A stretch of DNA of 24,786 nucleotides, taken from the IMG/VR virus record IMGVR_UViG_3300034122_000073, positions 1 through 24,786 of that record. One strand, written 5' to 3'. The notes below the pieces were generated by a model. That model was not told where the DNA came from. It searched no databases and saw nothing but the letters and a program-made list of their open reading frames with translations. This DNA comes from a virus. Positions within the stretch are counted from its first letter, which is position 1. Each line of letters opens with the position of its first letter. Shown here piece after piece: positions 2,352 to 20,483 of this stretch. Both the position numbers and the translations under genes were made by a program.

Positions 2352-4514
2352 TTAGGTTGTTGTTATGTACATAAGATTTCCATACGTCAGCAATTGCGAC
2401 CGCATATTTGACCCAACAATGGTGACGCCCCAGTCAAGTTGTCTAAGAACAAAGTAAGTCTGTCCACTTGGCTGCCAAGCGTAAATTGGAACGCTATTTC
2501 CTAATGTAGTCCACAACATGAACGCCCCAGCACAACCTTCATGTTGAGTAGTAAAAGGCAACCCTCGAATATAAATTGCGTTTCCCGCTGTCCAAGTTGG
2601 GGTTGAATCATAATAAGCAGAAAAGTTTATATACACCCACTTCCCGATTTTTACGTATCGGCAATTTACTCCATAGGCGTTTCCGCCAGAAGTGTTGTCT
2701 GCAAAAAAGATGGTTGTGCTTCCTTCCTCATAATCATCTAGCGTGTTTTCGTTAGATGATGCAGATTGCGTAGCAGGGAAGGTGATGCCTGTGCCGTTTG
2801 CAGTTGTGTCACCACCAGACAAAATCAAAGTCTTTGCCGTGGCACTAAAACGCGCTGTCTCGCTGCCATTCGTCCAGAAGGTCATGGGGAGGTAGGTGCC
2901 GGTTCCTGTGATGCCGGAACGAACGGAAACCTCGCCGCCGCCGCCAGAAAGCGCTTCAAGAATTGATGCGTTAGTTGGGTCTGAGTTGTTGTATAAGCGA
3001 ATGTTTCCTTGTTGCGCTGTTCCGTTTGGGATAACACCCAGAGAGGAATTAGAGTTAGCCGTACTCGTCTGGAACAACACACGGTTAGCAATCGTCGCAT
3101 TGCTGAAGTCGCCAGTGATGCGCCGTGCGTTGCCGTCGAATACCAAGTTCGCTTGCAGATTCAGCGCACCCGTCATTGTGTCGCCGGTCTTGGCGACAGC
3201 GTTTGCCACGTTGAACACAGCGAAGGCGATTACCATCAGCTCGTCGTTCAGCGCGGCAGCAGAAGTCAGCACAACGCTGGTGCCGTTGGTCGCGGTGTAG
3301 TCATCACCCGGACGCAGCGTCACGCCGTTCAACGATACGCTGATGCTGTTGGCGACATAGGAGAGAGTCGCGCCATTGGCATCTGTGCCGGAGAAAGTAG
3401 TCTGGCCTGAGGTGGCGACATACTCATAGGTCACCATCAGCGACTGCTGGGCAGCAGAAGCCTCCAGCCACTGAGCGCCGTCGTAGACTTTCATGCCCAC
3501 AGGCGTGGTCGTGCGGTAGTACAACGCACCTGTCAGCAGTGCGTTGCCGTCATTGTCCACCGTCGGGTTACTAGACTTCGCACCAAGGTAGCGATCATCA
3601 AAGTTATCCAACGCAGCCGCAGCAGCCGCAGCAGATGTCGCTGCATTTGTTTCACTTGTGGCCGCAGCAGTGGCGCTGTTCGATGCGTTTGTTGCACTTG
3701 TGCTGGCATTGCTGGCAGACGTGCTGGCAGCTGTTGCTGAGTTCGATGCGTTGGTCGCCGACGTACTAGCTGCACTCGCGCTGTTGGATGCGTTCGTCGC
3801 CGAGGTTGCTGCGTTGCTGGCGCTGGTCGATGCCGAGCTGGCCGAGTTGGATGCGTTCGTCGCACTGGTCGAAGCATTCGACGCAGAGGTCGAAGCATTG
3901 CTGGCTTGAGTCGTAGCTGTGCTGGCAGAGCTACTGGCGCTTGAGGCCGAGGTGGATGCCGAAGAAGCTGAGGATGCAGCCGCTGTAGCACTGTTAGCAG
4001 CGTTAGTAGCATACGTCTGCGCGTTCATTACTTCAGTTGCAGTAATCGATGCAACAGGATCACCTGTCGTCGCATCGAATGAAAGCACTTTGCCAACACG
4101 CGATGACTTTGCAGGCAGTGTCATGTTGATGTCTGTCGGGTCATAGACCGGAGCCTTTAGACCACGCAGCGCCAACTCATATGTCTGCTGATTGAAGATC
4201 GTCTGAGCATCTAACTCTTCGTTCAGCGAGTTAGCCAGCAAGTCGCCACCAGTCACGAAGTCAGTAGACCGGGCAATACCACGGTCCCCAACGATGGTGA
4301 TGTTACTTGTGCCTGCGGTAGTTACCAGCGTAACCGAGCCAGTGCCATCGACATTAAGACTGACGGTATAGTCAGTCGTTAGTGTCAGCAACGTGGAGCC
4401 ACGATAGACAGCAATGTCTGTCTGCGCGAGAACCTCGAAGGTAAACTGATACGGTCCTGTACCATTAGGCGCATAGACAACTCTACGCAGTACATCAGAA
4501 ATATCGATTGCCAT
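2352..4514 (-). CDS. Tail fibre protein, T7 gp17-like N-terminus with heptad-repeat shaft
   Basis: A 720-aa fibre protein starting at ATG 4514 with AGAGGT as SD. Residues 1-155 match the T7-type fibre attachment domain: an early RRVVYAPNGTGPYQF, an IAVYRGSTLLT strand, then TGGDLLANSLNEELDAQTIF and TYELALRGLKAP. Residues about 164-303 are some 20 tandem 7-residue repeats of the type N-A-S-(T/N)-S-A-(T/S), a trimeric helical shaft. Then come a DGAQWLEA strand region and a VAKTGDTMTGALNLQ motif (about residue 435), typical of phage fibres. The last about 135 residues begin N-T-L-D-D-Y-E-E-G, a widely shared exchangeable tip module, and include RYVKIGKWVYINF. The DNA of this tip is only about 42% GC against 57-60% in adjacent parts of the gene. 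The protein should form a trimer attached to the tail tube and bind the host surface; no depolymerase motif was recognised. Confidence 0.9.
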   Translation of the reverse strand: MAIDISDVLRRVVYAPNGTGPYQFTFEVLAQTDIAVYRGSTLLTLTTDYTVSLNVDGTGSVTLVTTAGTSNITIVGDRGIARSTDFVTGGDLLANSLNEELDAQTIFNQQTYELALRGLKAPVYDPTDINMTLPAKSSRVGKVLSFDATTGDPVASITATEVMNAQTYATNAANSATAAASSASSASTSASSASSSASTATTQASNASTSASNASTSATNASNSASSASTSASNAATSATNASNSASAASTSATNASNSATAASTSASNASTSATNASNSATAAATSETNAATSAAAAAAALDNFDDRYLGAKSSNPTVDNDGNALLTGALYYRTTTPVGMKVYDGAQWLEASAAQQSLMVTYEYVATSGQTTFSGTDANGATLSYVANSISVSLNGVTLRPGDDYTATNGTSVVLTSAAALNDELMVIAFAVFNVANAVAKTGDTMTGALNLQANLVFDGNARRITGDFSNATIANRVLFQTSTANSNSSLGVIPNGTAQQGNIRLYNNSDPTNASILEALSGGGGEVSVRSGITGTGTYLPMTFWTNGSETARFSATAKTLILSGGDTTANGTGITFPATQSASSNENTLDDYEEGSTTIFFADNTSGGNAYGVNCRYVKIGKWVYINFSAYYDSTPTWTAGNAIYIRGLPFTTQHEGCAGAFMLWTTLGNSVPIYAWQPSGQTYFVLRQLDWGVTIVGSNMRSQLLTYGNLMYITTT
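3606..4025 (-). repeat. In-frame tandem 21-bp repeats encoding about 20 Ala/Ser/Thr/Asn heptads
   Basis: Degenerate 21-bp units encode heptads such as NASTSAT, NASNSAS and AASTSAT in uninterrupted register across fibre residues about 164-303. The DNA copies have diverged at synonymous and Ser/Thr/Asn positions. The repeat also keeps other frames open, producing long artefactual ORFs on both strands. Confidence 0.85.
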
Positions 4515-4525
4515 ATTGTTACCTC

Positions 4526-7489
4526 TTAGTCCTCAAGCCTTAAACGGGTTGCGAGATCGGGGTCCTTCATCTTCAGCTTCTCCAGTGCCATCCTGTCAAA
4601 GACAGAAGCGATTGCCTGCAAAGAATCAGCCTTTTGCTCTTTGTCCATCAGAGCGTACTCTGGTGAACGAATCTTATTGACCATCATCGAATACATTGTG
4701 GCACCGGGATCGTACCCATCCCCAGTTGCGCTCTTCTCTCCCGGACCCCGGCCAGAAGCATCAATCTCCATCGCCGTTTTCAGAAGAAAATTATATTGCT
4801 CGGCGTTAAAAATAACACCACCTTTTTTCTTTTCTGGCATTTTTATGCCAGCCTCCAGCCGCTGCAATTCCTTGCCAACTTGGCTATATTGCTGGCTGTA
4901 GGTTTTCCACGGGGTGAATAGCTCATATGCCGAGCCATTGCCCTGTGGGACAGTCTCAGCCCAGCGGTTAAGCTTTGGTGGCATATCCTTAGAGAAGAAC
5001 GGATTACGCGCCTTGGCCTTCTGTAGCGCCTCGTAGAAGCCTCTGAGCGGTGCTGGCAGACGGGTAGGGTCTTCGTTGAACATACCCTTGGCTGGCAGCA
5101 TAGTGCTGGAGCCATCAGGCATGATCCACCGCTCTGTGGCCGCAAAGCCAGACGAGACAGTTGGGAAGACATTCAGGCCAGCAGACACAGCTTTCTCTGA
5201 TGCAACTTCGACAACCCTAGCCAGCTTATCTTTCATCTCACGCTGCTGCGGTCCAAAGGCCTTAGAGATGTCAGCAATGCCTTCCACCATCGGCAGGCTA
5301 GTCATGAACTCAGCCACGCTCAAAGTCATAGCTAAAGCCAAGCCTTCCAACACCGAGTTGTCTTCTTCGTGCTGGGCGTAGTAGGCAAAGTCAGCCGCCA
5401 TCGCAATGACACCAGCCTCCGGTCCTAGCTGGTTGTAGCTGTAGCCAGTCCAGTTGCCATCAGCATCCTTGAAGTTGATGGTGTACGGCATGATGCCCAT
5501 TGCTTGCAAATTCTGTTGAGCTGCAAGATCACTAGGGCCAGCACCAGTAATGACCATGTTGTCGCCAAAGCCGCCCATAGCGCCCCAAGCAATCATGCCC
5601 ATTGTGGACGAGCCAAGCGCAACCTTGGACAAAGCCAGATCAGCTTCAGGACCACCAGCTTTCAACGTCTGGTAAAACTTAGGATTGACGAACTGTGCCG
5701 GGCTACGCTCTAGTGTTTGCAGGATGACATTGCTGGGTGTCTTGTAGAACGGGACGATCAGCTTGACAGCCGGATGGTTGAAAAACGGCTCCATCTTTGC
5801 AAGGAAGTCAGGCAGATCGCCTTGGAATACCATCTCCTTTGCGCCTTCACGAACATCCGCAATGATGTTCTCTGGCGGGTTCTGCATTATTTCTGCATAC
5901 CGCTTTGAGGCAGCAGCACGAGCAAACTCTTTAGTCTGTTTCTGCTCAAGTAGGTCATCGTACAGCTTCATGCTGTCGCGCTTTGCCACCTTACGCAGCA
6001 AGTGCTGGGAAGCCACCGACTTAAATACCTCGTCCTCTGTCACCAAGAATCTGCCCGGCAACCGATAGTAGTTACCCAATACATCGACAGCACGGCCACC
6101 AAGACTGTTCTCGGGAATACTGAAGTTCTTTGCGGTAATTGCTTTGCGGGTATTCAACTCCAATTTATTGACGGTACTGACAGGCTCACCACGGGCAAAT
6201 ACCTTGCCGCCAATCAAGAACGAGTCACGCATGATTTCAGGCAGATCAGACAACGAAGCAAATGCCTCGCTGGAATACACCCGATCCTTTGATCCTGTAA
6301 TTGCAGTCCTTGCCTTCCCAATGACACCAGCCAATGCTGTTTCAGGAACGTCAGCGACCAATCGAATAAAATTCGATGTGACGTTGACCATGTGGGTAAC
6401 TGGGCTACTCAGGATGGAGTTGATATAAATCTCCATCAAGGCATCGACAGTTTTGGCACCAATGCTCTTCTTAATAAACCGTGCCTGCTGGGCAGGATTG
6501 TCCAGACTCTCATACAGCCGGATGGCAACATCAATGTTCTTGCCGCCACCAAAGTCTCTGGCGATCTGCTGAATCTTCTGTGAGCGACCAGCAATCGATG
6601 CCATGTCAATGCCAGTGGTCTGTGCCAATTGACTGACCGTATACATGGTTCTGGCGCTCTCACTTGCCACACCAGATACTGAGGCCAGCATATCGGCTTC
6701 AGCGTTGACAACCTTCAGCCATGCAGCCTTGTCGGCATCTGTGCCAGTCTGGATAGCCTTCTTGCCCAAAGCACGGGCTTCGTTGTTCAGCGCAACCGAT
6801 GAGATGAAGCCAGCTAAAAAGTCTTCCGCATTGAAGACCTCGCCCTCTTTGCGGTTCAGAAACATCTTAACGATGTCGTCCATGCCACGGGCTTCAGCCG
6901 CAGCCATCAACGCATCCATGTTCAGTGTGCCACGACGGGCAGACTCAATCAGATCAGGGTTAGCGTTCTTGATCGCATTCAGATACTCAAGGCTATCCCT
7001 TGCATCGCCAGTGGCATCGTCGATCAGACGGACAATGTTGATGCCCTTGCCCTTCTGAGCGCCAAGGCCATCCAGAAACGACTGCATACCGGCTTCAGTC
7101 TCCGGCATAATTGTGATGGTATTACCACGGACTTTTGGCTCAACCGGCTCATCAATCATCACGCTGCGCTGTTCAGCAGCTTTGGTGGCATTCTTGACGC
7201 GCTTAATAACCTTGGGGACAGCCTGAACAGCTTCCTCTACTGTGGTAGCCGCCTTCTTTGGCAGCATCTTCTTAGCGCCTTTGATAACAAGCCCACCGAC
7301 TTTCTCACCAATACCAGCAAGCGGCTCGTACTCAGGGAACTCTTCTGGCGCAACACCTGTCTGGACAGCAACTTCCTGCTCAACTTCCTGAACATCAATT
7401 GGGGACGCATCCGGTACTGGGATAGTCTCAGCAGCAACAGATGTCGTCATCTGATCCAGCTTGTTCTCAATGCCTTGTTGGATAGCCAT
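4526..7489 (-). CDS. Large internal virion / ejection protein (gp16-like position, LPD38-like polyvalent protein)
   Basis: A 987-aa protein, the largest in the window, from ATG at 7489 directly after the upstream stop. Residues 1-110 are a low-complexity acidic linker with a short amphipathic lysine-rich stretch. Residues about 120-350 are mainly helical. Around 353-400 it has INSILSSPVTHMVNVTSNF, and later FNHPAVKLIVPFYKTPSNVI and Gly/Ala-rich hydrophobic segments (TMGMIAWGAMGGFG). I recognise this as the LPD38 type of large polyvalent protein domain, found in phage proteins thought to be injected with DNA. By position it replaces T7 gp16, but it is shorter (gp16 is about 1300 aa) and I see no N-terminal lytic transglycosylase. 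It is probably stored in the capsid and helps form the trans-envelope DNA conduit; this is inferred from synteny and family, not from a catalytic motif. Confidence 0.8.
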   Translation of the reverse strand: MAIQQGIENKLDQMTTSVAAETIPVPDASPIDVQEVEQEVAVQTGVAPEEFPEYEPLAGIGEKVGGLVIKGAKKMLPKKAATTVEEAVQAVPKVIKRVKNATKAAEQRSVMIDEPVEPKVRGNTITIMPETEAGMQSFLDGLGAQKGKGINIVRLIDDATGDARDSLEYLNAIKNANPDLIESARRGTLNMDALMAAAEARGMDDIVKMFLNRKEGEVFNAEDFLAGFISSVALNNEARALGKKAIQTGTDADKAAWLKVVNAEADMLASVSGVASESARTMYTVSQLAQTTGIDMASIAGRSQKIQQIARDFGGGKNIDVAIRLYESLDNPAQQARFIKKSIGAKTVDALMEIYINSILSSPVTHMVNVTSNFIRLVADVPETALAGVIGKARTAITGSKDRVYSSEAFASLSDLPEIMRDSFLIGGKVFARGEPVSTVNKLELNTRKAITAKNFSIPENSLGGRAVDVLGNYYRLPGRFLVTEDEVFKSVASQHLLRKVAKRDSMKLYDDLLEQKQTKEFARAAASKRYAEIMQNPPENIIADVREGAKEMVFQGDLPDFLAKMEPFFNHPAVKLIVPFYKTPSNVILQTLERSPAQFVNPKFYQTLKAGGPEADLALSKVALGSSTMGMIAWGAMGGFGDNMVITGAGPSDLAAQQNLQAMGIMPYTINFKDADGNWTGYSYNQLGPEAGVIAMAADFAYYAQHEEDNSVLEGLALAMTLSVAEFMTSLPMVEGIADISKAFGPQQREMKDKLARVVEVASEKAVSAGLNVFPTVSSGFAATERWIMPDGSSTMLPAKGMFNEDPTRLPAPLRGFYEALQKAKARNPFFSKDMPPKLNRWAETVPQGNGSAYELFTPWKTYSQQYSQVGKELQRLEAGIKMPEKKKGGVIFNAEQYNFLLKTAMEIDASGRGPGEKSATGDGYDPGATMYSMMVNKIRSPEYALMDKEQKADSLQAIASVFDRMALEKLKMKDPDLATRLRLED

Positions 7490-8581
7490 TTACTTTCTAC
7501 CTTCAGTGCTGGTTGCTTTACGGACAAACGTAATGCCTTTGCCGCCATCACTTACGCGCTCAAATTCTGTTTGAAGAACTCGTGCCGCCAAACTCTTTAC
7601 CTTCTTTAGATCAGCTTCTTTTGCAAAGGTAATTGACTCAATTGATCTCGGAGCCACAACGTCTGCCTTATATTCTCGACCAGCCAAGTTTCCTGTCATT
7701 GGCTTTTTGCTTTCTTCACCACTGACAGAGTTTGGCCTAAACTTGACAGTAACACCTTTATTTACGCCTTGACCAAGCGCAATGTCAGCATTGTCTGTGA
7801 CAAATACATTGGCATAAGAAAACTGGCCGTCTTGTCTCAACAAGTCAGTCAACCCATCAACATTAGTTTCACGATACAAAGGTTTGTTTTCAGCAATTAC
7901 TTTGGGTTTAATATTTGCTGGCCCAACTGGAAATCGCTCAATTGAATCAACCCGTGGCAATGCAAATTGTGTAATGCCAGTTTTTTCTGCATACTTCGCA
8001 AGCATTTCGCCAGCAGCCGGAGCTAGTGATTTGGCTACTTTCTTGCCGCCTTTATAAGCCAAGCCTGCTGCCGGAGCCAAGTTAATTAGTTCAGCCGACT
8101 CCATTGTTGGGCTTAACGTCTGGCCGCTGCCAGTCACCGGCGGGAAGCCTTCAGCAATGTTGACCAGCACTTTACCCAAGTCACCAACGGTCAAGTCCTT
8201 CAGCGTCAGTGTGCCAATGCCGGGCAAGCCCAGCACATCAAAGTCAATCTTCTCAGCACCAGACTGGATCAGCTGACCCACGCTCTTTAGTGCGCTCATG
8301 GCCCCAGTAGGCTGGATTGCCTTGGCCTCACCCAGATCAAGCTGACCTTGCTTTGGCGACACTGGTGGCTTCACAGCCTTCTTCGCAGGCTTTGGCAAGC
8401 TGCCAGTAACCACGACTTCAGGCAATGACGGTGCAGCAGCAGGCGCAGGCGTTTCTTCCATCGCCACTTCTGCTTCAGGCAGGTAGTAACGCATCACGCC
8501 ATCAGCATCCAACCGCATATCAAGCGGCTGGTCGCCAGACTTCATGATCTTGGCTTTTAGATATTCTTGATCGAAATCCAT
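7490..8581 (-). CDS. Virion-associated protein with C-terminal ADP-ribosyltransferase-like domain (tentative)
   Basis: A 363-aa protein from ATG at 8581, overlapping the previous stop as TAATG. Residues 1-100 are a Pro/Ala-rich linker containing LPEVVVTG, then a helical middle with GLPGIGTLTLKDLTVGDLGK (118-137). Residues about 230-320 look like a compact alpha/beta domain: KPLYRETNVDGLTDLL, then VFVTDNADIALGQGVNKGV, then GREYKADVVAP and SIESITFA. A basic residue in strand one (R237), a Ser/Thr strand (FVTDN, 260-264) and an E before a late strand (E303-Y304) resemble the R-S-E layout of ADP-ribosyltransferase folds. The DNA of this half is about 42% GC against about 56% for the first half, so the domain looks acquired. 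Lying between the internal virion genes, it could be an ejected effector, as T4 Alt is. The fold assignment is inference. Confidence 0.6.
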   Translation of the reverse strand: MDFDQEYLKAKIMKSGDQPLDMRLDADGVMRYYLPEAEVAMEETPAPAAAPSLPEVVVTGSLPKPAKKAVKPPVSPKQGQLDLGEAKAIQPTGAMSALKSVGQLIQSGAEKIDFDVLGLPGIGTLTLKDLTVGDLGKVLVNIAEGFPPVTGSGQTLSPTMESAELINLAPAAGLAYKGGKKVAKSLAPAAGEMLAKYAEKTGITQFALPRVDSIERFPVGPANIKPKVIAENKPLYRETNVDGLTDLLRQDGQFSYANVFVTDNADIALGQGVNKGVTVKFRPNSVSGEESKKPMTGNLAGREYKADVVAPRSIESITFAKEADLKKVKSLAARVLQTEFERVSDGGKGITFVRKATSTEGRK

Positions 8582-10761
8582 TATTTGCCCTTCAGCGAAT
8601 CAAGATCATTGATATACAAGCGCAAGTCTTGCGGGGCAAGCTTCGTCGTCAGGTCACTCTTCTGCCCAGAAATACTCAATTGAATTTGAGCGCGAATAGC
8701 ATCATCAGTATATGTCTTACCTTTAGGCAAGTAAGTATTGCGGAACGAATCAACCCTTGATCGAGCGCCATTAACAACCTTTGCCTCTTTGTCTTTGACC
8801 GCATCTTTGAGAAGGGTATCCATTTCCTGCATTGCATTCCACGGCTTCTGGTCTTTTGAGCCGACAGTAGAGCGCCACTTGTTGTAACGATCACTGTATT
8901 CAGTAGAGACGGCAATGTAGGCGTTTTGTGCCTCAATGTCAGAAGCAGTCTTGTTGACAGCATCGGCAATTGCTTTTGTATATTTAAGCTTGTTCCTAGC
9001 CTTTTCATCAGCAAGTTGGTTTTCTTTGTCCATCGCTGTCAAAGCGTAACCAAAGTATTGCTCTTGAGAATTAAGCGTCAGGTTGCTGCCTAATCGCAAC
9101 ACCATGTCTGTATTCAGTGTGCCATTCGCTCTGGCAATCTGTAGCTGACGAATTGTGCCGCCATCATCTTGGGTACGACCAGCAGCAAATGCTTTAGTAA
9201 TGTCAGTCCACTTGAGGGAATCAAGCGTTTTTAGTTCAGCAAGCGCAACCTTAACTTCTGGGGAATTTCTAGGCTTCCCAAAGATTATTTGTATTTTTTC
9301 TCTTACCGCATCTTTACGAGCGTCTTCTACACGACGGTCTTCGCTGGCAAGGAATGAGTTACGCGCAGTGATTTCCTCACGCAGATGTTTCTGAAGTTCA
9401 ACCTTGGTAGCCAGATCAGCAGACTGGAAGATGTAGTTGATCGACTTAGAGTTGTCGCCAGTAGCAGCCTGACCAAGCACCAGACTCTTCTGCTGGTCCG
9501 GTGTCATCTTTGTTTGTACAAAGTCAGAGATAAACTGCTTATAAACGACCATCAGGCCATCTGATGCAGCTTTGGTAATCTCAGGGGAATTGACAGCCGC
9601 AGCCGTACTCTTAAACTCTTTAGCTTTCCCAGCCAAGAACTCAGAGATGCCTGCTGCACTTACACCCGGATCACCAGCATCATAGGCCAGAAATTTTTCA
9701 CGCAAGCCTTCAGCAACTTCAATGACCGCCCGAGATGAAGTCAACTTATCAATCTCACGGCTTTTGGTAATTAAGTTATAACGCGCATTGAATCCAGCAT
9801 TGAACTCTTCGCGGACCGACTTCTTCTCTTCGTCGTTCAGGTAGTTCCACTCGGCCTGCAAGTCAATCGGCACCTCATTGCCAGCAACATTGACCTTGAT
9901 ATTGAATTGTCCACTTTCCAGTGCTTTCTGAACAATCTGTGGATTATCCAAAGCAGCAGGCGAGTTGACAGCATTCTTGATTCTTGCGGTAACAGCAGCC
10001 CGGAATGCTTTATTTGCAGGCGTAAAAAATGTATTTTCATCACCATGCTTTGCGGCAAACATGGCAGGGTCTCTTAATACAACAGACTCAATCTGCTTCA
10101 TGTCAACAGACGCACCGCTTCCAATTAGCTTGCTGATTTGAAAATCAATCTGGTCTGGGAACGTATCAATATATTGCTTCAATACAATTTCATCAGTCGT
10201 CTTAGTGCGTCTTGCCGTCATCTGCACGGCTTTCTCGTACACAGACGATCCGCGCATAGCCACATTGGCTTTGAACTTTAAGCCGACTTCTGGACTCATA
10301 GACGCAACGACAGGCATAGCACCATCAATTGCATCACGCACCGTAGCCACAGCCTGTTGCTCGGTAATCTCGCCTAGCTCAAGCTTTTTCTTTAACAGGT
10401 CAAACTGGTTCTCAAGCCGGACCGTCAACTCGGAACTTAGCTGAGATGCCTGCGCTGCCATGTAGGTTTCTTTGAAAACCTTACCCTGACCTTTGAAGTA
10501 CTTGTCTAGCTCTTTAGGATCGCGGCGAATGTCACGCCATTGTTCTGGGGTCAGCGGCCTTTCAATCGCATACTCTGCTGCCTTACGGCGAACATCTTCC
10601 TCTTGCGCTTTAAGCAAGGACTGCGACATCCGATCAAGTGCATCACCAATGTTGCCGCCAGCTCTGGCAGTGACTGCTAAGTCTTCAAAACGCAAAGAAG
10701 GAACGTCAGCAAGTGCTGCACGTTGTACATTGGCGGCTTGTACTTTAGGTAATTCGGCCAT
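8581..10761 (-). CDS. Internal virion protein C-like (T7 gp15 position)
   Basis: A 726-aa, highly charged, almost entirely helical protein. I prefer ATG at 10761 (MAELPKVQAANV): it lies one base after the upstream stop and has GGAA about 8 bases before it. The longer GTG frame to 10821 would overlap the upstream gene by 59 nt. The N-terminus contains GNIGDALDRMSQSLLKAQEE, typical of podophage ejection proteins. The centre has long heptad-like helices. Length (gp15 of T7 is 747 aa) and order between gp14-like and gp16-like genes support an internal virion protein C role: part of the inner core ejected with the DNA to build the periplasmic tunnel. No enzymatic motif is seen. Confidence 0.8.
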   Translation of the reverse strand: MAELPKVQAANVQRAALADVPSLRFEDLAVTARAGGNIGDALDRMSQSLLKAQEEDVRRKAAEYAIERPLTPEQWRDIRRDPKELDKYFKGQGKVFKETYMAAQASQLSSELTVRLENQFDLLKKKLELGEITEQQAVATVRDAIDGAMPVVASMSPEVGLKFKANVAMRGSSVYEKAVQMTARRTKTTDEIVLKQYIDTFPDQIDFQISKLIGSGASVDMKQIESVVLRDPAMFAAKHGDENTFFTPANKAFRAAVTARIKNAVNSPAALDNPQIVQKALESGQFNIKVNVAGNEVPIDLQAEWNYLNDEEKKSVREEFNAGFNARYNLITKSREIDKLTSSRAVIEVAEGLREKFLAYDAGDPGVSAAGISEFLAGKAKEFKSTAAAVNSPEITKAASDGLMVVYKQFISDFVQTKMTPDQQKSLVLGQAATGDNSKSINYIFQSADLATKVELQKHLREEITARNSFLASEDRRVEDARKDAVREKIQIIFGKPRNSPEVKVALAELKTLDSLKWTDITKAFAAGRTQDDGGTIRQLQIARANGTLNTDMVLRLGSNLTLNSQEQYFGYALTAMDKENQLADEKARNKLKYTKAIADAVNKTASDIEAQNAYIAVSTEYSDRYNKWRSTVGSKDQKPWNAMQEMDTLLKDAVKDKEAKVVNGARSRVDSFRNTYLPKGKTYTDDAIRAQIQLSISGQKSDLTTKLAPQDLRLYINDLDSLKGK

Positions 10762-10762
10762 G

Positions 10763-11314
10763 TCAAGATTCCATTCCGTAGCCAATGCTGCGCTCTTCAA
10801 TCGGCGCAAACGGACTGCCACCGCCAGAGGAAGGTGTCATTAAATCTTTACCTGCCTTGAACGCAAAGACGGAACCAATCGCAGCATCGAACAATGCCGA
10901 GGTCATCGCTGCCTTACCAGCCGAGCGGTAGATGTCTGCCTGTACGCCAGAAGCCAGTTGTGCCTCTAGGCCAGCATTCAGTGATTGGATCGCGTTCTCG
11001 CGTGAAATATCAAAGTCACGGCTAGACTGCACACCTTGCTGGAATGCAACTTCTGCCGCAGAACCTTCTTGGCTTAGTACGCCACCAGCCGCTGCACGAG
11101 CGTTGACCGCAGCGTAGAAACGGCGCTGGTTCTTCAGAATGTCCAATGCCTGATTGTTGTAGTTCAGCGCAGTAATGCGGCCTTTCAAAGCCTCTCGTTC
11201 ACCTTGCAGGCGAGTCTGCTCGGCCTGAAAGTTGTACATTTTCTGCTGCTGGATGCCACCATAAATCTTGGAGCCAGCGGCAACTGCGGCAAAAATATAA
11301 GGAATAGCCTGCAT
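10763..11314 (-). CDS. Internal virion protein B-like (T7 gp14 position)
   Basis: A 183-aa protein from ATG at 11314, overlapping the previous stop. It begins MQAIPYIFAAVAAGSKIYGG, a short hydrophobic segment followed by a long helix (QQQKMYNFQAEQTRLQGERE). It contains ALDILKNQRRFYAAVNARAA, then GGVLSQEGSAAEVAF and RDFDISRENA. The hydrophobic start, the N-(Q)-A-L-x-x-L-x-N-Q-R-R segment, the A-A-G-G-V-x-x-x-E-G-S turn and the length (gp14 of T7 is 196 aa) are typical of gp14-like internal virion proteins. These are ejected first and form a pore in the host outer membrane. Its position directly after tail tubular B agrees. Confidence 0.85.
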   Translation of the reverse strand: MQAIPYIFAAVAAGSKIYGGIQQQKMYNFQAEQTRLQGEREALKGRITALNYNNQALDILKNQRRFYAAVNARAAAGGVLSQEGSAAEVAFQQGVQSSRDFDISRENAIQSLNAGLEAQLASGVQADIYRSAGKAAMTSALFDAAIGSVFAFKAGKDLMTPSSGGGSPFAPIEERSIGYGMES

Positions 11315-13290
11315 TATGTCCCCGCGTAAGTAGACACTTTATATTCAAGACCAAGCAATGTCATCTTCAGCGGCAAAGTCTGCGTGACATCGACGTATGC
11401 TTCTCTGGTGTAGCCAAGGATGCCCTCAAGTTCCTTGATGCCAGTATATGACGGTTCAGGTTGGTCAAGAATGTCTTCACCAAACTTCTTAAACGTCACC
11501 AGCTTGTCGTTGATAACAAAGTGCTGTGTCTCGTAAACAATCGCATTGACTTCAACAATGCGTTTCTTGAATGATGTTCTAACGCCAGCCGTTGTCTTCA
11601 CCTCGACAGGCATGGTCTTGACGCGAGTGGTAAACGGCAAGCCAACCTCGTAGCTAGTTGCAGCTGGGCGTTCAAATGTCACCGCACCACTTGCCACCAC
11701 CTCGTTCTCCAGCACAACGCCATCGGCTATGACATTAACAGTCTTGCCATTAAGCGGCAGGCCTGAAGCACCAGAACCAGCACCACCAGTCTTGTTACAA
11801 TCGGTGAAAGTACCATCGGTAAACAGCTCAACAAAGTAACGATTCGTTCCACCAATAACTCGTTTCACAAGTACATAAATATCAGTTACATCTACGCCGA
11901 CTTCTTCAAACGTCCCGTCGGTTGTAAACTCTGTGGCAGCAACAATCTGTTGGCTTCTTAGCACCGTGTAAGCCGCCATTGTGCCATCACTTACATTCGG
12001 TATCAGCAGCAAGTCACCTTCATCGGTAGACGTTGCTTTCCGCAAAGCAAGACGCTTTGGGTTCTTCATCAAGTGCGAAGATAACAGCGATACGCGCTGC
12101 GTTACATAAGTCGCTTCGGTATCCGTGTAGAGGAATTCGTTAAGCGATTTGCCTTGGCGCTGTAGGTAGATGGTACTGCCGTCAAGCTGCTGAACTCGGA
12201 CACCTTCTTTTGCTCCGTTCTTACTTGCGCCTTTGACAAAGAAGTTGGTCGGCGTGATAGGGTCCAGACCAGACTGCGGCACATAGAACTCAGCACCAGT
12301 AGTAAACACTTGAAGATCACGAGCTGAAATAAGATCAACGATGGTATTAAGCTGGTTCGTGTCCAGAGTTGCCTCAAGCGCATCGTCTTCATATCCACTG
12401 TCCGGTCTAAAGTCGAAGAACAAACCTACCTTGCTGCCCCAGATCGTTGACACTCTGGACTTACTGCCGCCAAAGTACAACCGTCCTTCGTGGAAGGTGA
12501 CGGTTCTCGGCCAGCCTTTAGTGCTAGACCAAACAGCTTCGTAGCCGCCTTCGACTTCCCATGAACCACTGGCAATGGCGTTTGTATCAAAGAAGGGAAT
12601 CTCAGTAATTCCGCGTACCACCGTGCCAGAATCATAGGACGTTATCCTTAACCGTCCCTGCGGCGTAGCATTGATGTATTGCCCGACGCTGCCAGACGTA
12701 AACACCGAAGCGGATGCCGTAACCTTAACCGTCCCAGAAGTCTTATCAGGGGTAAGCGTCGCAGCAGGATTCGTAAAGGTCTGAGTAAATGCGTAAAACG
12801 GGATCGAATCAAAAGTGATCGTAGATATTGTCCAAGACGCATCATTGGCACCACGCACTAATTTAACTGGAGCAACGTCCGGGTGGACAATAATCATTGT
12901 ATCTGCTGACTGCGTGTAGCAGATGGTGTTTAAACGAGAACCTGTCAAACCAACGCCACTGGTGCTTAGATAATCGTTGCCAGACGCATTGATGTTCGTA
13001 ATCAGTACGCCATCCTTAAAGACAGCCATCTGGTTATTGGTAAAGCACAGCATATAGCTGTCTGTTACCGAAAACTCAAACGGAACTAGCCGTGCGCCAG
13101 ACGAGGCATTAGCAATCTCTGCAATGTACTTTAAGCCTGAACGACGCTTTACACCGCCCTGTGGCTGCACAATAACATTCGTCAACTTCTCGCAGGCATT
13201 CTCGTATTGCTTTAAGTCAATACGCGCACGGAGCAACGGGTCAATCTCACCCGAAGTAAAGTTGGTCTGAATGTTGATGAAGCGTGTCAT
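11314..13290 (-). CDS. Tail tubular protein B / stabilisation protein (gp12-like)
   Basis: A 658-aa protein. Start chosen at ATG 13290, which overlaps the upstream TGA as TGATG and has GAGGT four bases before it; the TTG at 13293 is too close to that SD. The N-terminus INIQTNFTSGEIDPLLRARI followed by DLKQYENACEKLTN and QPQGGVKRRSG is the hallmark of phage stabilisation/tail tubular B proteins. It continues as beta-propeller-like strands, including FHEGRLYFGGSKSRVSTIWG. T7 gp12 is longer (794 aa). The protein forms the tail nozzle below the portal and gp11 ring, and helps hold the fibres. Confidence 0.92.
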   Translation of the reverse strand: MTRFINIQTNFTSGEIDPLLRARIDLKQYENACEKLTNVIVQPQGGVKRRSGLKYIAEIANASSGARLVPFEFSVTDSYMLCFTNNQMAVFKDGVLITNINASGNDYLSTSGVGLTGSRLNTICYTQSADTMIIVHPDVAPVKLVRGANDASWTISTITFDSIPFYAFTQTFTNPAATLTPDKTSGTVKVTASASVFTSGSVGQYINATPQGRLRITSYDSGTVVRGITEIPFFDTNAIASGSWEVEGGYEAVWSSTKGWPRTVTFHEGRLYFGGSKSRVSTIWGSKVGLFFDFRPDSGYEDDALEATLDTNQLNTIVDLISARDLQVFTTGAEFYVPQSGLDPITPTNFFVKGASKNGAKEGVRVQQLDGSTIYLQRQGKSLNEFLYTDTEATYVTQRVSLLSSHLMKNPKRLALRKATSTDEGDLLLIPNVSDGTMAAYTVLRSQQIVAATEFTTDGTFEEVGVDVTDIYVLVKRVIGGTNRYFVELFTDGTFTDCNKTGGAGSGASGLPLNGKTVNVIADGVVLENEVVASGAVTFERPAATSYEVGLPFTTRVKTMPVEVKTTAGVRTSFKKRIVEVNAIVYETQHFVINDKLVTFKKFGEDILDQPEPSYTGIKELEGILGYTREAYVDVTQTLPLKMTLLGLEYKVSTYAGT

Positions 13291-19743: not shown

Positions 19744-19995
19744 TTATTCCATTACAACCAATTGTGGTATACCCGCCTCTGCGTCCATGCGCTCGGCAGA
19801 CAGCAATGCGCGTTGACCGCCACGCCGTCTAGCTCTGGCTTGCGCTTGCATCCGCATCGCTTCTTCTGTTTTCAGTTCAGCAATATCGTCTTCTTGTTTT
19901 TTAATCCGTGCCGACTCGCGCTCATTAGCTTGGCGCTGTAGTTCCATTTGTGCGCGGACAGCCCGATCTGAGCCACCGCCAAATAATCCGCTCAT
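19744..19995 (-). CDS. 83-aa coiled-coil small protein with C-terminal RALLS-ER motif
   Basis: ATG at 19995 overlaps the upstream stop as ATGA. It begins MSGLFGGGSDRAVRAQMELQ, has a charged helix (RQANERESARIKKQEDDIAE) likely to form a coiled coil, then RARRRGGQRALLSAERMDAE and AGIPQLVVME. The MSG-x-F/(V)-G start followed by a Q/E/R-rich helix and a basic C-terminus is seen in small proteins between terminase and portal genes of podophages. It shares the R-R-R-G-x-R-A-L-L-S-x-E-R-x-x-A-E-x-G tail with its downstream neighbour. Function unknown; a head-associated role is inferred from place. Confidence 0.8.
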   Translation of the reverse strand: MSGLFGGGSDRAVRAQMELQRQANERESARIKKQEDDIAELKTEEAMRMQAQARARRRGGQRALLSAERMDAEAGIPQLVVME

Positions 19996-20483
19996 GTTTG
20001 CCTCACAATGCTCATCATGTAGAAATCAGCCTTATCGGTTCCATAGGCTTTTAAGATACCTTCTTGCTTAAATCCAATAGCATTCGCCCATTTAACCGCT
20101 GCTTCGTGGTCGCACCTTACTGTAATCTGTTGCCGGTGTAAACCGTAGGATATCGCGCATATATCCATAAATGCTCTGCCGCCACGGGTCATGAATATAG
20201 GATAGGCGCGTAGACGTTCATCTGGGATGAACCACATCTCGGCAACACCCGGCCAAAGTGGCACCATGCCGAACACGCCGACGGGTTGACCGTGGATCAT
20301 GACGGTTGTGGCCTCGCCCATGTTGGCTTGAGCCGTTACCAGTTGCTCACGAGAAACGCTATCCCCAATACAGAGGATGTCTTTGTTGTTAGTATTTATG
20401 TAACTAACATGGTCTGGGGCGTAGGGCATAAAAATCGCCCCATTGGGGCGACGGACTTGCTCGTTTAAGTCGAAGGCAATCAT
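19992..20483 (-). CDS. GNAT-fold acetyltransferase-like phage protein
   Basis: A 163-aa protein from ATG at 20483 (ATGA overlap with TerL). The middle GQPVGVFGMVPLWPGVAEMW (65-84) is a beta4-like GNAT strand pair followed by FIPDERL. The C-terminal part AAVKWANAIGFKQEGILKAY, then GTDKADFYMMSIVR, is the usual GNAT ending: an (A)-x-x-(W)-x-x-x-x-G-F-x-x-E-G-x-L strand pair. A clean Q/RxxGxG/A acetyl-CoA loop is not obvious, so it may be inactive. In podophages such genes next to terminase are often annotated as GNAT or as internal virion protein A (gp13-like), which shares this fold; a virion role is possible. Confidence 0.8.
   Translation of the reverse strand: MIAFDLNEQVRRPNGAIFMPYAPDHVSYINTNNKDILCIGDSVSREQLVTAQANMGEATTVMIHGQPVGVFGMVPLWPGVAEMWFIPDERLRAYPIFMTRGGRAFMDICAISYGLHRQQITVRCDHEAAVKWANAIGFKQEGILKAYGTDKADFYMMSIVRQT

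What the first reader, a model, noticed from the sequence alone, without database searches (positions are those of the whole stretch)
7490..8581. Ejection-module protein with a possible ADP-ribosyltransferase domain
Seen: residues 230-320 contain LYRETN, VFVTDNADIALGQGVNKGV and GREYKADVVAP in an order like the R / S-T / E strands of ADP-ribosyltransferase folds. The gene lies between the gp15-like and gp16-like genes. Known: phages such as T4 inject ADP-ribosyltransferases (Alt) from the capsid, and polyvalent virion proteins often carry effector domains. Inference: this is a virion-packaged toxin or host-takeover enzyme in a T7-type ejection apparatus, which T7 itself lacks.
Basis: partly seen in the sequence, partly recalled or inferred. 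Interest (0 to 1): 0.78.

Follow-up and report, generated by a model that had tools for sequence, protein, structure and literature searches.

The report
Phage-carried enzyme in swappable effector slot
A short-tailed phage carries, between two genes of its DNA-injection machine, a gene whose product looks like an enzyme that tags host molecules with ADP-ribose, and in related phages the same spot holds other possible host-attacking enzymes, so the injection machine seems to have an exchangeable payload position.

Summary
The ORF is on the minus strand (8581 to 7490, 363 aa). Residues 212-363 form a domain with relatives in other phage-type sequences (27-row alignment). R237 and E303 are invariant in 27 of 27; T262 is T or S in 17, A in 10. 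An AlphaFold2 model (pLDDT 79.6, pTM 0.79) puts R237 in core strand 1, T262 at the end of strand 2 and E303 at the start of strand 5; its best PDB matches are ADP-ribosyltransferase (ART) superfamily. No Pfam or NCBIfam model matches it, and it is not the usual polyvalent-protein ART (PF18760).

The larger result is the place. In 79 of 79 loci holding both neighbours, an ORF of 174-1048 aa fills the gap between the gp15-like and gp16-like genes. Its leader and cargo recombine: this ART, a putative HExxH metallopeptidase, PF18760 ART, Zeta-toxin kinase, PBECR5 nuclease, DUF7178, or none. Pfam (1e-3) found nothing in 60 gp15-like and gp16-like proteins from 30 such loci.

Best reading: a virion-packaged, injected ART effector in an exchangeable payload position of a T7-type ejection module. 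Predicted fold and position are shown; catalysis, packaging, injection and target are inferred.

The parts
7490..8581 (-). slot protein gene, 363 aa, ATG start, TAA stop
7493..7948 (-). C-terminal ART-like domain, residues 212-363
   Evidence: alignment A5, AF2 model, fold matches
8027..8314 (-). leader type A, residues 90-185, conserved in relatives with other cargo or none
7871..7873 (-). codon of R237, core strand 1, invariant 27 of 27
7796..7798 (-). codon of T262, end of core strand 2, T/S 17 and A 10 of 27
7673..7675 (-). codon of E303, first residue of core strand 5, invariant 27 of 27
8581..10821 (-). gp15-like (tunnel position) 746 aa; no PHROG match at 0.01 and only a chance-level Pfam match (PA-IIL, 0.046); named by position, size and own HMM
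4526..7489 (-). gp16-like internal virion protein, 987 aa
   Evidence: phrog_6651 1.6e-25; Syn5 internal virion protein; P-SSP7 gp16 via the L035 homologue
10763..11314 (-). gp14-like internal virion protein, 183 aa
   Evidence: phrog_418 7.9e-9

Best explanation
The gene encodes an extra internal virion protein of a T7-type ejection module: a flexible N-terminus and a leader (residues about 90-185), then a C-terminal mono-ADP-ribosyltransferase of an R-[T/A/S]-E type that no Pfam or NCBIfam model matched. It is made with the gp15-like and gp16-like proteins, packaged with them, and enters the cell with the DNA. There it uses NAD+ to ADP-ribosylate a host macromolecule early in infection. The leader serves packaging or translocation and the C-terminal domain is an exchangeable effector. 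Shown: gene, coupling, synteny, conservation, predicted fold, cargo exchange between relatives. Inferred: catalysis, packaging, injection, target, role of the leader.
For: Fold: AF2 pLDDT 79.6, pTM 0.79; Foldseek PDB ranks 1-12 are all tRNA 2'-phosphotransferases (ART superfamily; best E 0.012, prob 1.00); of the 50 entries listed by VIA-align, 49 are ones I know as ART superfamily (Tpt1 Z 6.7, Scabin 6.4, TreX 6.0, pertussis S1 5.4, DarT 4.8). Residues: R237 and E303 27 of 27, in core strands 1 and 5. Constraint: dN/dS 0.109 (window-L003) and 0.045 (L033-L035) in the domain; the other five pairs had saturated dS. Place: an ORF between gp15-like and gp16-like in 79 of 79 loci. Exchange: L006 keeps gp14-, gp15- and gp16-like neighbours 99.5, 89.5 and 94.5% identical to the window's but carries an HExxH domain instead; L027, whose gp15- and gp16-like proteins are 99% and 92% identical to those of L009, carries PF18760 ART-PolyVal (9.3e-23) where L009 has another domain; leaders and cargo reassort. 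Fusion: the domain is also inside giant proteins, 5 of 11 long relatives scanned having the polyvalent domain LPD38, e.g. phage BA3. Control: 0 of 60 gp15/gp16-like proteins from 30 loci have a Pfam match at 1e-3, against 24 member matches to four families (DUF7178 16, ART-PolyVal 6, PBECR5 1, Zeta_toxin 1) among 60 slot proteins.
Against: No Foldseek PDB match below 1e-3 and no VIA Z of 8 or more. The T/S of motif II is A in 10 of 27. No sequence-profile match to ART families: the window protein has no Pfam match and hhalign against slot ART-PolyVal gives 5.8%, aligning only the FVTD..IA stretch. No proteomics. Five cultured relatives with a larger gp16 have no annotated gene in the slot, so it is not needed for ejection in general. 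Several slot Pfam matches are below Pfam's curated cut-off.
Confidence: 0.68

Rival explanations
1. The domain is an ART-fold enzyme acting on nucleic acid (like KptA/Tpt1, DarT or Scabin), for example repairing or modifying RNA or DNA against a host defence, rather than a protein-modifying ART.
For: Closest folds are KptA/Tpt1, and Scabin and DarT are also listed.
Against: E303 is invariant at the strand-5 start, unlike the Arg-His-Arg-Arg set of KptA (recalled); no KptA model among the Pfam matches of 27 members. Substrate cannot be read from fold.
Confidence: 0.17
2. The protein acts in the producing cell or as a structural part of the ejection module, and the ART-like domain is not delivered.
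For: No direct evidence of packaging; relatives with a leader only (L008, L026, L128) show that the gene persists without cargo.
Against: Variable enzyme cargo on shared leaders suits delivery better than structure; purifying selection on the domain.
Confidence: 0.12
3. A degenerate ART that binds NAD or a partner without catalysis.
For: Motif II S/T is Ala in 10 of 27.
Against: R237 and E303 invariant over rows down to 17% identity to the window.
Confidence: 0.08
4. The ART fold is a modelling artefact.
For: Alignment of only 27 rows; Z below 8 can mean a common arrangement (note).
Against: The best matches fall in one superfamily; in the 50 Foldseek rows shown, unrelated chains have prob 0.10 or less except two HAD-type hydrolases at 0.44 and 0.47; the named residues sit at the expected catalytic strands.
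Confidence: 0.04

Closest known systems
ART-PolyVal (PF18760), ART of phage polyvalent proteins
   Same: ART superfamily; used as cargo in the same slot by L027
   Different: H in strand 1 and D in strand 5 by PMC5512222 (passages); here R and E; no Pfam match; hhalign 5.8%
T4 Alt, ModA, ModB (Alt/VIP2, R-S-E ARTs)
   Same: R-[S/T]-E type layout; Alt is packaged and injected (PMC5512222 passages)
   Different: no Pfam model of this group matched; no direct comparison made; here a podovirus ejection-module gene
KptA/Tpt1 tRNA 2'-phosphotransferase
   Same: closest solved fold
   Different: no invariant strand-5 Glu in KptA (recalled); no Pfam match here
T7 ejection proteins gp14, gp15, gp16
   Same: same gene order; gp16-like protein homologous to internal virion proteins of T7-like phages
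   Different: in T7 and its relatives gp15 is followed by gp16 (PMC8954989 passages); here an extra cargo gene lies between
Phage BA3 2631-aa polyvalent protein (BA3_0002)
   Same: contains the same ART-like domain, 40% identity over residues 220-355
   Different: one giant protein with methyltransferase and LPD38 domains instead of a small slot gene

Membership tests
ART superfamily | ART fold (split beta core) | tested here: met
   best matches all ART superfamily, Z up to 6.7, Foldseek prob 1.00; predicted model, no Z of 8 or more
ART superfamily | R or H in strand 1 | tested here: met
   R237 27 of 27, strand 24-28 of the model
ART superfamily | S/T or aromatic motif in strand 2 | tested here: inconclusive
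   T262: T 15, S 2, A 10 of 27
ART superfamily | E/D/Q at strand 5 | tested here: met
   E303 27 of 27, first residue of strand 92-98
ART superfamily | NAD+-dependent transfer | not testable with these tools
   needs assay
ART-PolyVal PF18760 | profile match | tested here: not met
   no match by the window domain or the 26 other members at E up to 10; hhalign 5.8%
ART-PolyVal PF18760 | H in strand 1 | tested here: not met
   R in 27 of 27
KptA/Tpt1 | sequence-family match | tested here: not met
   seven Pfam families listed for 27 members, none KptA
T7-type ejection module | gp14-, gp15-, gp16-like neighbours | tested here: met
   phrog_418, phrog_6651; synteny 79 of 79; gp15-like named by position only
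Polyvalent/injected effector | virion packaging and delivery | not testable with these tools
   inferred from synteny and fusions

The most novel reading that the evidence does not exclude
A lineage of T7-type podoviruses has a dedicated payload gene between gp15 and gp16: a small set of leaders acts as a packaging and translocation signal onto which unrelated enzymes (two ART families, putative metallopeptidase, Zeta kinase, nuclease, DUF7178) are swapped by recombination, making the phage ejectosome a polymorphic effector-delivery system like the polymorphic toxins of bacteria.
Probability: 0.55. Interest if true: 0.85.

Novelty: new variant of a known kind. Interest (0 to 1): 0.72.

Why it matters
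Injected ARTs are prototyped by T4 Alt; PMC9503650 (passages) reports ARTs in only 3% of siphoviruses and podoviruses against 30% of myoviruses. If this reading is right, T7-type ejectosomes deliver enzymes as well as DNA, and this slot is a ready catalogue of early host-takeover or counter-defence enzymes, including DUF7178 and the ART family described here. A leader that moves cargo would also show how folded enzymes pass a short tail.

Tried and rejected
Sequence-only routes to a fold gave nothing: Pfam, NCBIfam and hmmsearch against PDB sequences; PDB sequence matches were at chance (E 0.74 and up: a designed protein, triosephosphate isomerase). The PADLOC library was not searched. The 'DNA methyltransferase' label of phrog_15406 belongs to a 2789-position family of giant proteins and was rejected as a function for this domain. 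A megablast of the window in phages found nothing; tblastn in plasmids found nothing at E 0.01. AF2 of the HExxH cargo was poor (pLDDT 61.3, pTM 0.43) and its fold search gave only E of 1.6 and up, so 'metallopeptidase' rests on HEILHH and PSE[YF]WA being conserved in 6 of 6 rows (meaning of the motifs recalled). A loose PG[DITVE] motif in the first 260 residues of slot proteins (16 of 53 representatives, 14 of them reading PGD, against 0 of 80 gp15-like and 4 of 92 gp16-like ORFs, the latter two sets not dereplicated) does not cover leader A. Promoter and terminator scans of 4400-11400 were at chance. Of the six slot ART-PolyVal matches counted, I scanned five singly: L027 passes Pfam's cut-off (82 bits against 31.2); L084, L097, L100 and L112 score 26.8-30.3; the sixth is L098 by motif only. 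L141 and L150 match DUF7178 only at 0.003.

Rows dropped before counts: of 80 loci, 62 upstream ORFs entered; the other 18 had no upstream ORF (L078, L096, L118) or looked like copies by length. These 62 were cut to 52 at 90% identity, and 8 slot proteins from other calls were added to make the 60; some of the 60 start at a contig end.

Full report
Observation. The ORF is real and lies on the minus strand, 8581 to 7490, 363 aa. The gene is tightly coupled to its neighbours: TAATG with the gp15-like gene and TAA-ATG with the gp16-like gene.

Neighbourhood. Upstream are a 183-aa gp14-like protein (phrog_418, 7.9e-9) and a 746-aa protein with no PHROG match at 0.01; downstream a 987-aa protein matching phrog_6651 'internal virion protein' at 1.6e-25. 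By tblastn the latter matches 33 phage records, among them Syn5 and P60 internal virion proteins; the homologue from L035 matches 53 records including P-SSP7 gp16. I call the 746-aa protein gp15-like by position and size only. The window is a 24786-base virus record; L001 is an IMG/VR contig whose 11 matched ORFs or ORF pieces are 100% identical to the window's. No host or habitat of the window is known from these calls.

The domain. Residues 212-363 have relatives in viral contigs, one contig of a Rhodoferax metagenome-assembled genome and one Marinobacter contig. Alignment A5 has 27 rows, the window included, and 24 after removing those over 90% identical. Ten of 152 columns are invariant: R237, E238, A268, G270, Q271, G272, N274, G276, P294, E303. 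The GQG.N block was part of the search patterns and so is invariant partly by construction; a motif with R237 and E238 was used to cut out 24 of the 27 rows; E303 was used in neither way. T262 is T 15, A 10, S 2. The one clear family match is phrog_15406 (18 of 27 members at 0.1 or better), a family of giant proteins; Pfam gave seven scattered chance-level families (best 0.009) over 27 members and none for the window.

Structure. AF2 with A5 gave pLDDT 79.6 and pTM 0.79: R237 lies in strand 24-28, T262 ends strand 44-51, E303 starts strand 92-98 (model numbering = residue minus 211; I count core strands from 24-28, leaving out two short N-terminal ones). Foldseek against PDB: ranks 1-12 are tRNA 2'-phosphotransferases, E 0.012 to 0.18, prob 0.92 to 1.00; rank 13 is unrelated with prob 0.05; further down two HAD-type hydrolases reach prob 0.44 and 0.47. 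VIA-align, which re-aligns Foldseek's own candidates: 50 entries listed, 49 of which I know as ART superfamily (recalled classification), best Z 6.7 over 95 residues at 3.0 A; none reaches Z 8. BFVD: BA3 at 3.1e-12, one more below 1e-3, then small phage proteins including phage G gp336 at 0.016 (the BA3 identity of the first entry is inferred from its 36% identity and accession, as the listing gives no name). The fold is therefore well supported but not proven. It is not PF18760: no match, R instead of H, hhalign 5.8%.

Constraint and movement. dN/dS (NG86) in the domain is 0.109 for window-L003 and 0.045 for L033-L035; the other five pairs had saturated dS. L033 and L035 share 90% of the domain but 36% of the aligned residues before it, so the domain moves between leaders.

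The slot. HMMs of the gp15-like and gp16-like proteins, seeded with ORFs chosen by position, were run on 91 loci; 79 hold both, and in 79 of 79 an ORF of 174-1048 aa (stop to stop) fills all or most of the gap. Three contigs occur twice among these loci (L001/L073, L004/L077, L006/L075), so 76 contigs; a 5-mer clustering leaves 53 representatives. In L095 and L111 an 89-aa ORF also lies there. Five cultured relatives with a longer gp16 (CRP-114, HTVC011P, Syn5, HTVC041P, Eyrgjafa) have no annotated gene there; MEP301 has a 161-aa one, gp25.

Cargo. Pfam at 1e-3 on 60 slot proteins: DUF7178 16, ART-PolyVal 6, PBECR5 1, Zeta_toxin 1, and two AAA models once each, which in L104 overlap the Zeta domain. 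Not all pass Pfam's curated cut-offs. By own searches the ART of this report is in 6 of the 60 (L073 and L076 by HMM; L003, L033, L035, L036 by BLAST) and HExxH in one, L075. Six more HExxH loci (L160-L165) have gp15-like upstream in 6 of 6 and gp16-like downstream in 5 of 6. Control: 60 gp15-like and gp16-like proteins of 30 loci give no Pfam match at 1e-3.

Reassortment. Leader A: this ART (window, L003, L004), HExxH (L006), PF18760 (L027), another domain (L009), none (L008, L026). Leader B: ART (L033), HExxH (L161-L165), none (L128), other (L141). Leader C: ART (L035), HExxH (L160), none (L080-L082, weak leader match), others. Leader D: ART (L036), other (L150). Leaders B and D are related to each other. 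Of the 80 slot proteins in that table 50 match none of the four leaders at 1e-4, so the reassortment is shown only for the window's closer relatives. In L006 against L001 the DNA is mostly above 80% identical per 60-base block up to about residue 180 and again from the gp16-like start, with the cargo replaced. L003 (ART) and L008 (none) have gp15-like 85% and gp16-like 78% identical, whereas L003 and the window share the slot protein at 87% (311 aligned residues) but the gp16-like protein at only 24%: the slot gene crosses between backgrounds.

Giant relatives. LPD38 is in 5 of 11 long relatives scanned (BA3, L043, L044, L045, L051; about 2200-2700 aa), InPase in L043 and L051, a methyltransferase in BA3; L037, L039, L040, L046, L049 and L050 gave no Pfam match at 0.01, and L041 was not scanned. 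These look like the polyvalent proteins of PMC5512222.

Literature (passages or listings only). PMC5512222 (passages): polyvalent ARTs are of H-Y-D type and Alt/VIP2 are R-S-E. PMC9503650 (passages): viral ARTs surveyed; 3% of podoviruses. PMC8954989 (passages): gp14-gp15-gp16 order, domain swapping among ejection proteins. PMC10386132 (passages): internal virion genes mosaic and hard to place. The listings of searches showed no paper on an exchangeable effector gene between gp15 and gp16; those of 98 and 100 showed only 12 of 201 and 12 of 3,965 papers, the library is open-access only, and supplements were not read.

Mechanism. Most likely the protein is packaged with the core proteins, leaves with them, and ADP-ribosylates a host target early. 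My estimates: ART fold about 0.93, active transferase about 0.8, packaged and injected about 0.75.

Noticed in passing
window 2352-4514 (minus), tail fibre residues 288-458: A Ser/Ala-rich stretch and what follows is 92-94% identical in the best BLAST piece to fibres of L003, L006 and L035 (other pieces not listed): a likely recombination site for fibre exchange.
   Followed up: no
slot proteins of L073-L152: DUF7178 is the commonest recognised cargo (16 of 60); its function is unknown and this position suggests an injected effector.
   Followed up: no
L104 3319-4998: Slot protein with a Zeta-toxin kinase domain, PF06414 at 1.2e-14.
   Followed up: partly
L054 1325-2881: 519-aa protein with what reads like a second ART-type domain before the one studied; no Pfam match at 0.01, so an impression only.
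   Followed up: no
L110 4953-7916: gp16-like protein split into two ORFs in one frame by a single stop; MEP301 also has it as two CDS.
   Followed up: no
L051 6264-14438: 2725-aa protein in a Marinobacter contig with InPase, LPD38 and weak ART-PolyVal and phosphoribosyltransferase matches besides this domain.
   Followed up: partly
window 19992-20483 (minus): 163-aa ORF near the packaging genes that reads like a GNAT acetyltransferase (impression, no call).
   Followed up: no
slot leaders, e.g. L033 near residue 103 of its ORF: A PGD motif in 14 of 53 slot representatives (16 by the looser pattern used), against 0 of 80 gp15-like and 4 of 92 gp16-like ORFs by the looser pattern: possible packaging or membrane signal.
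   Followed up: partly
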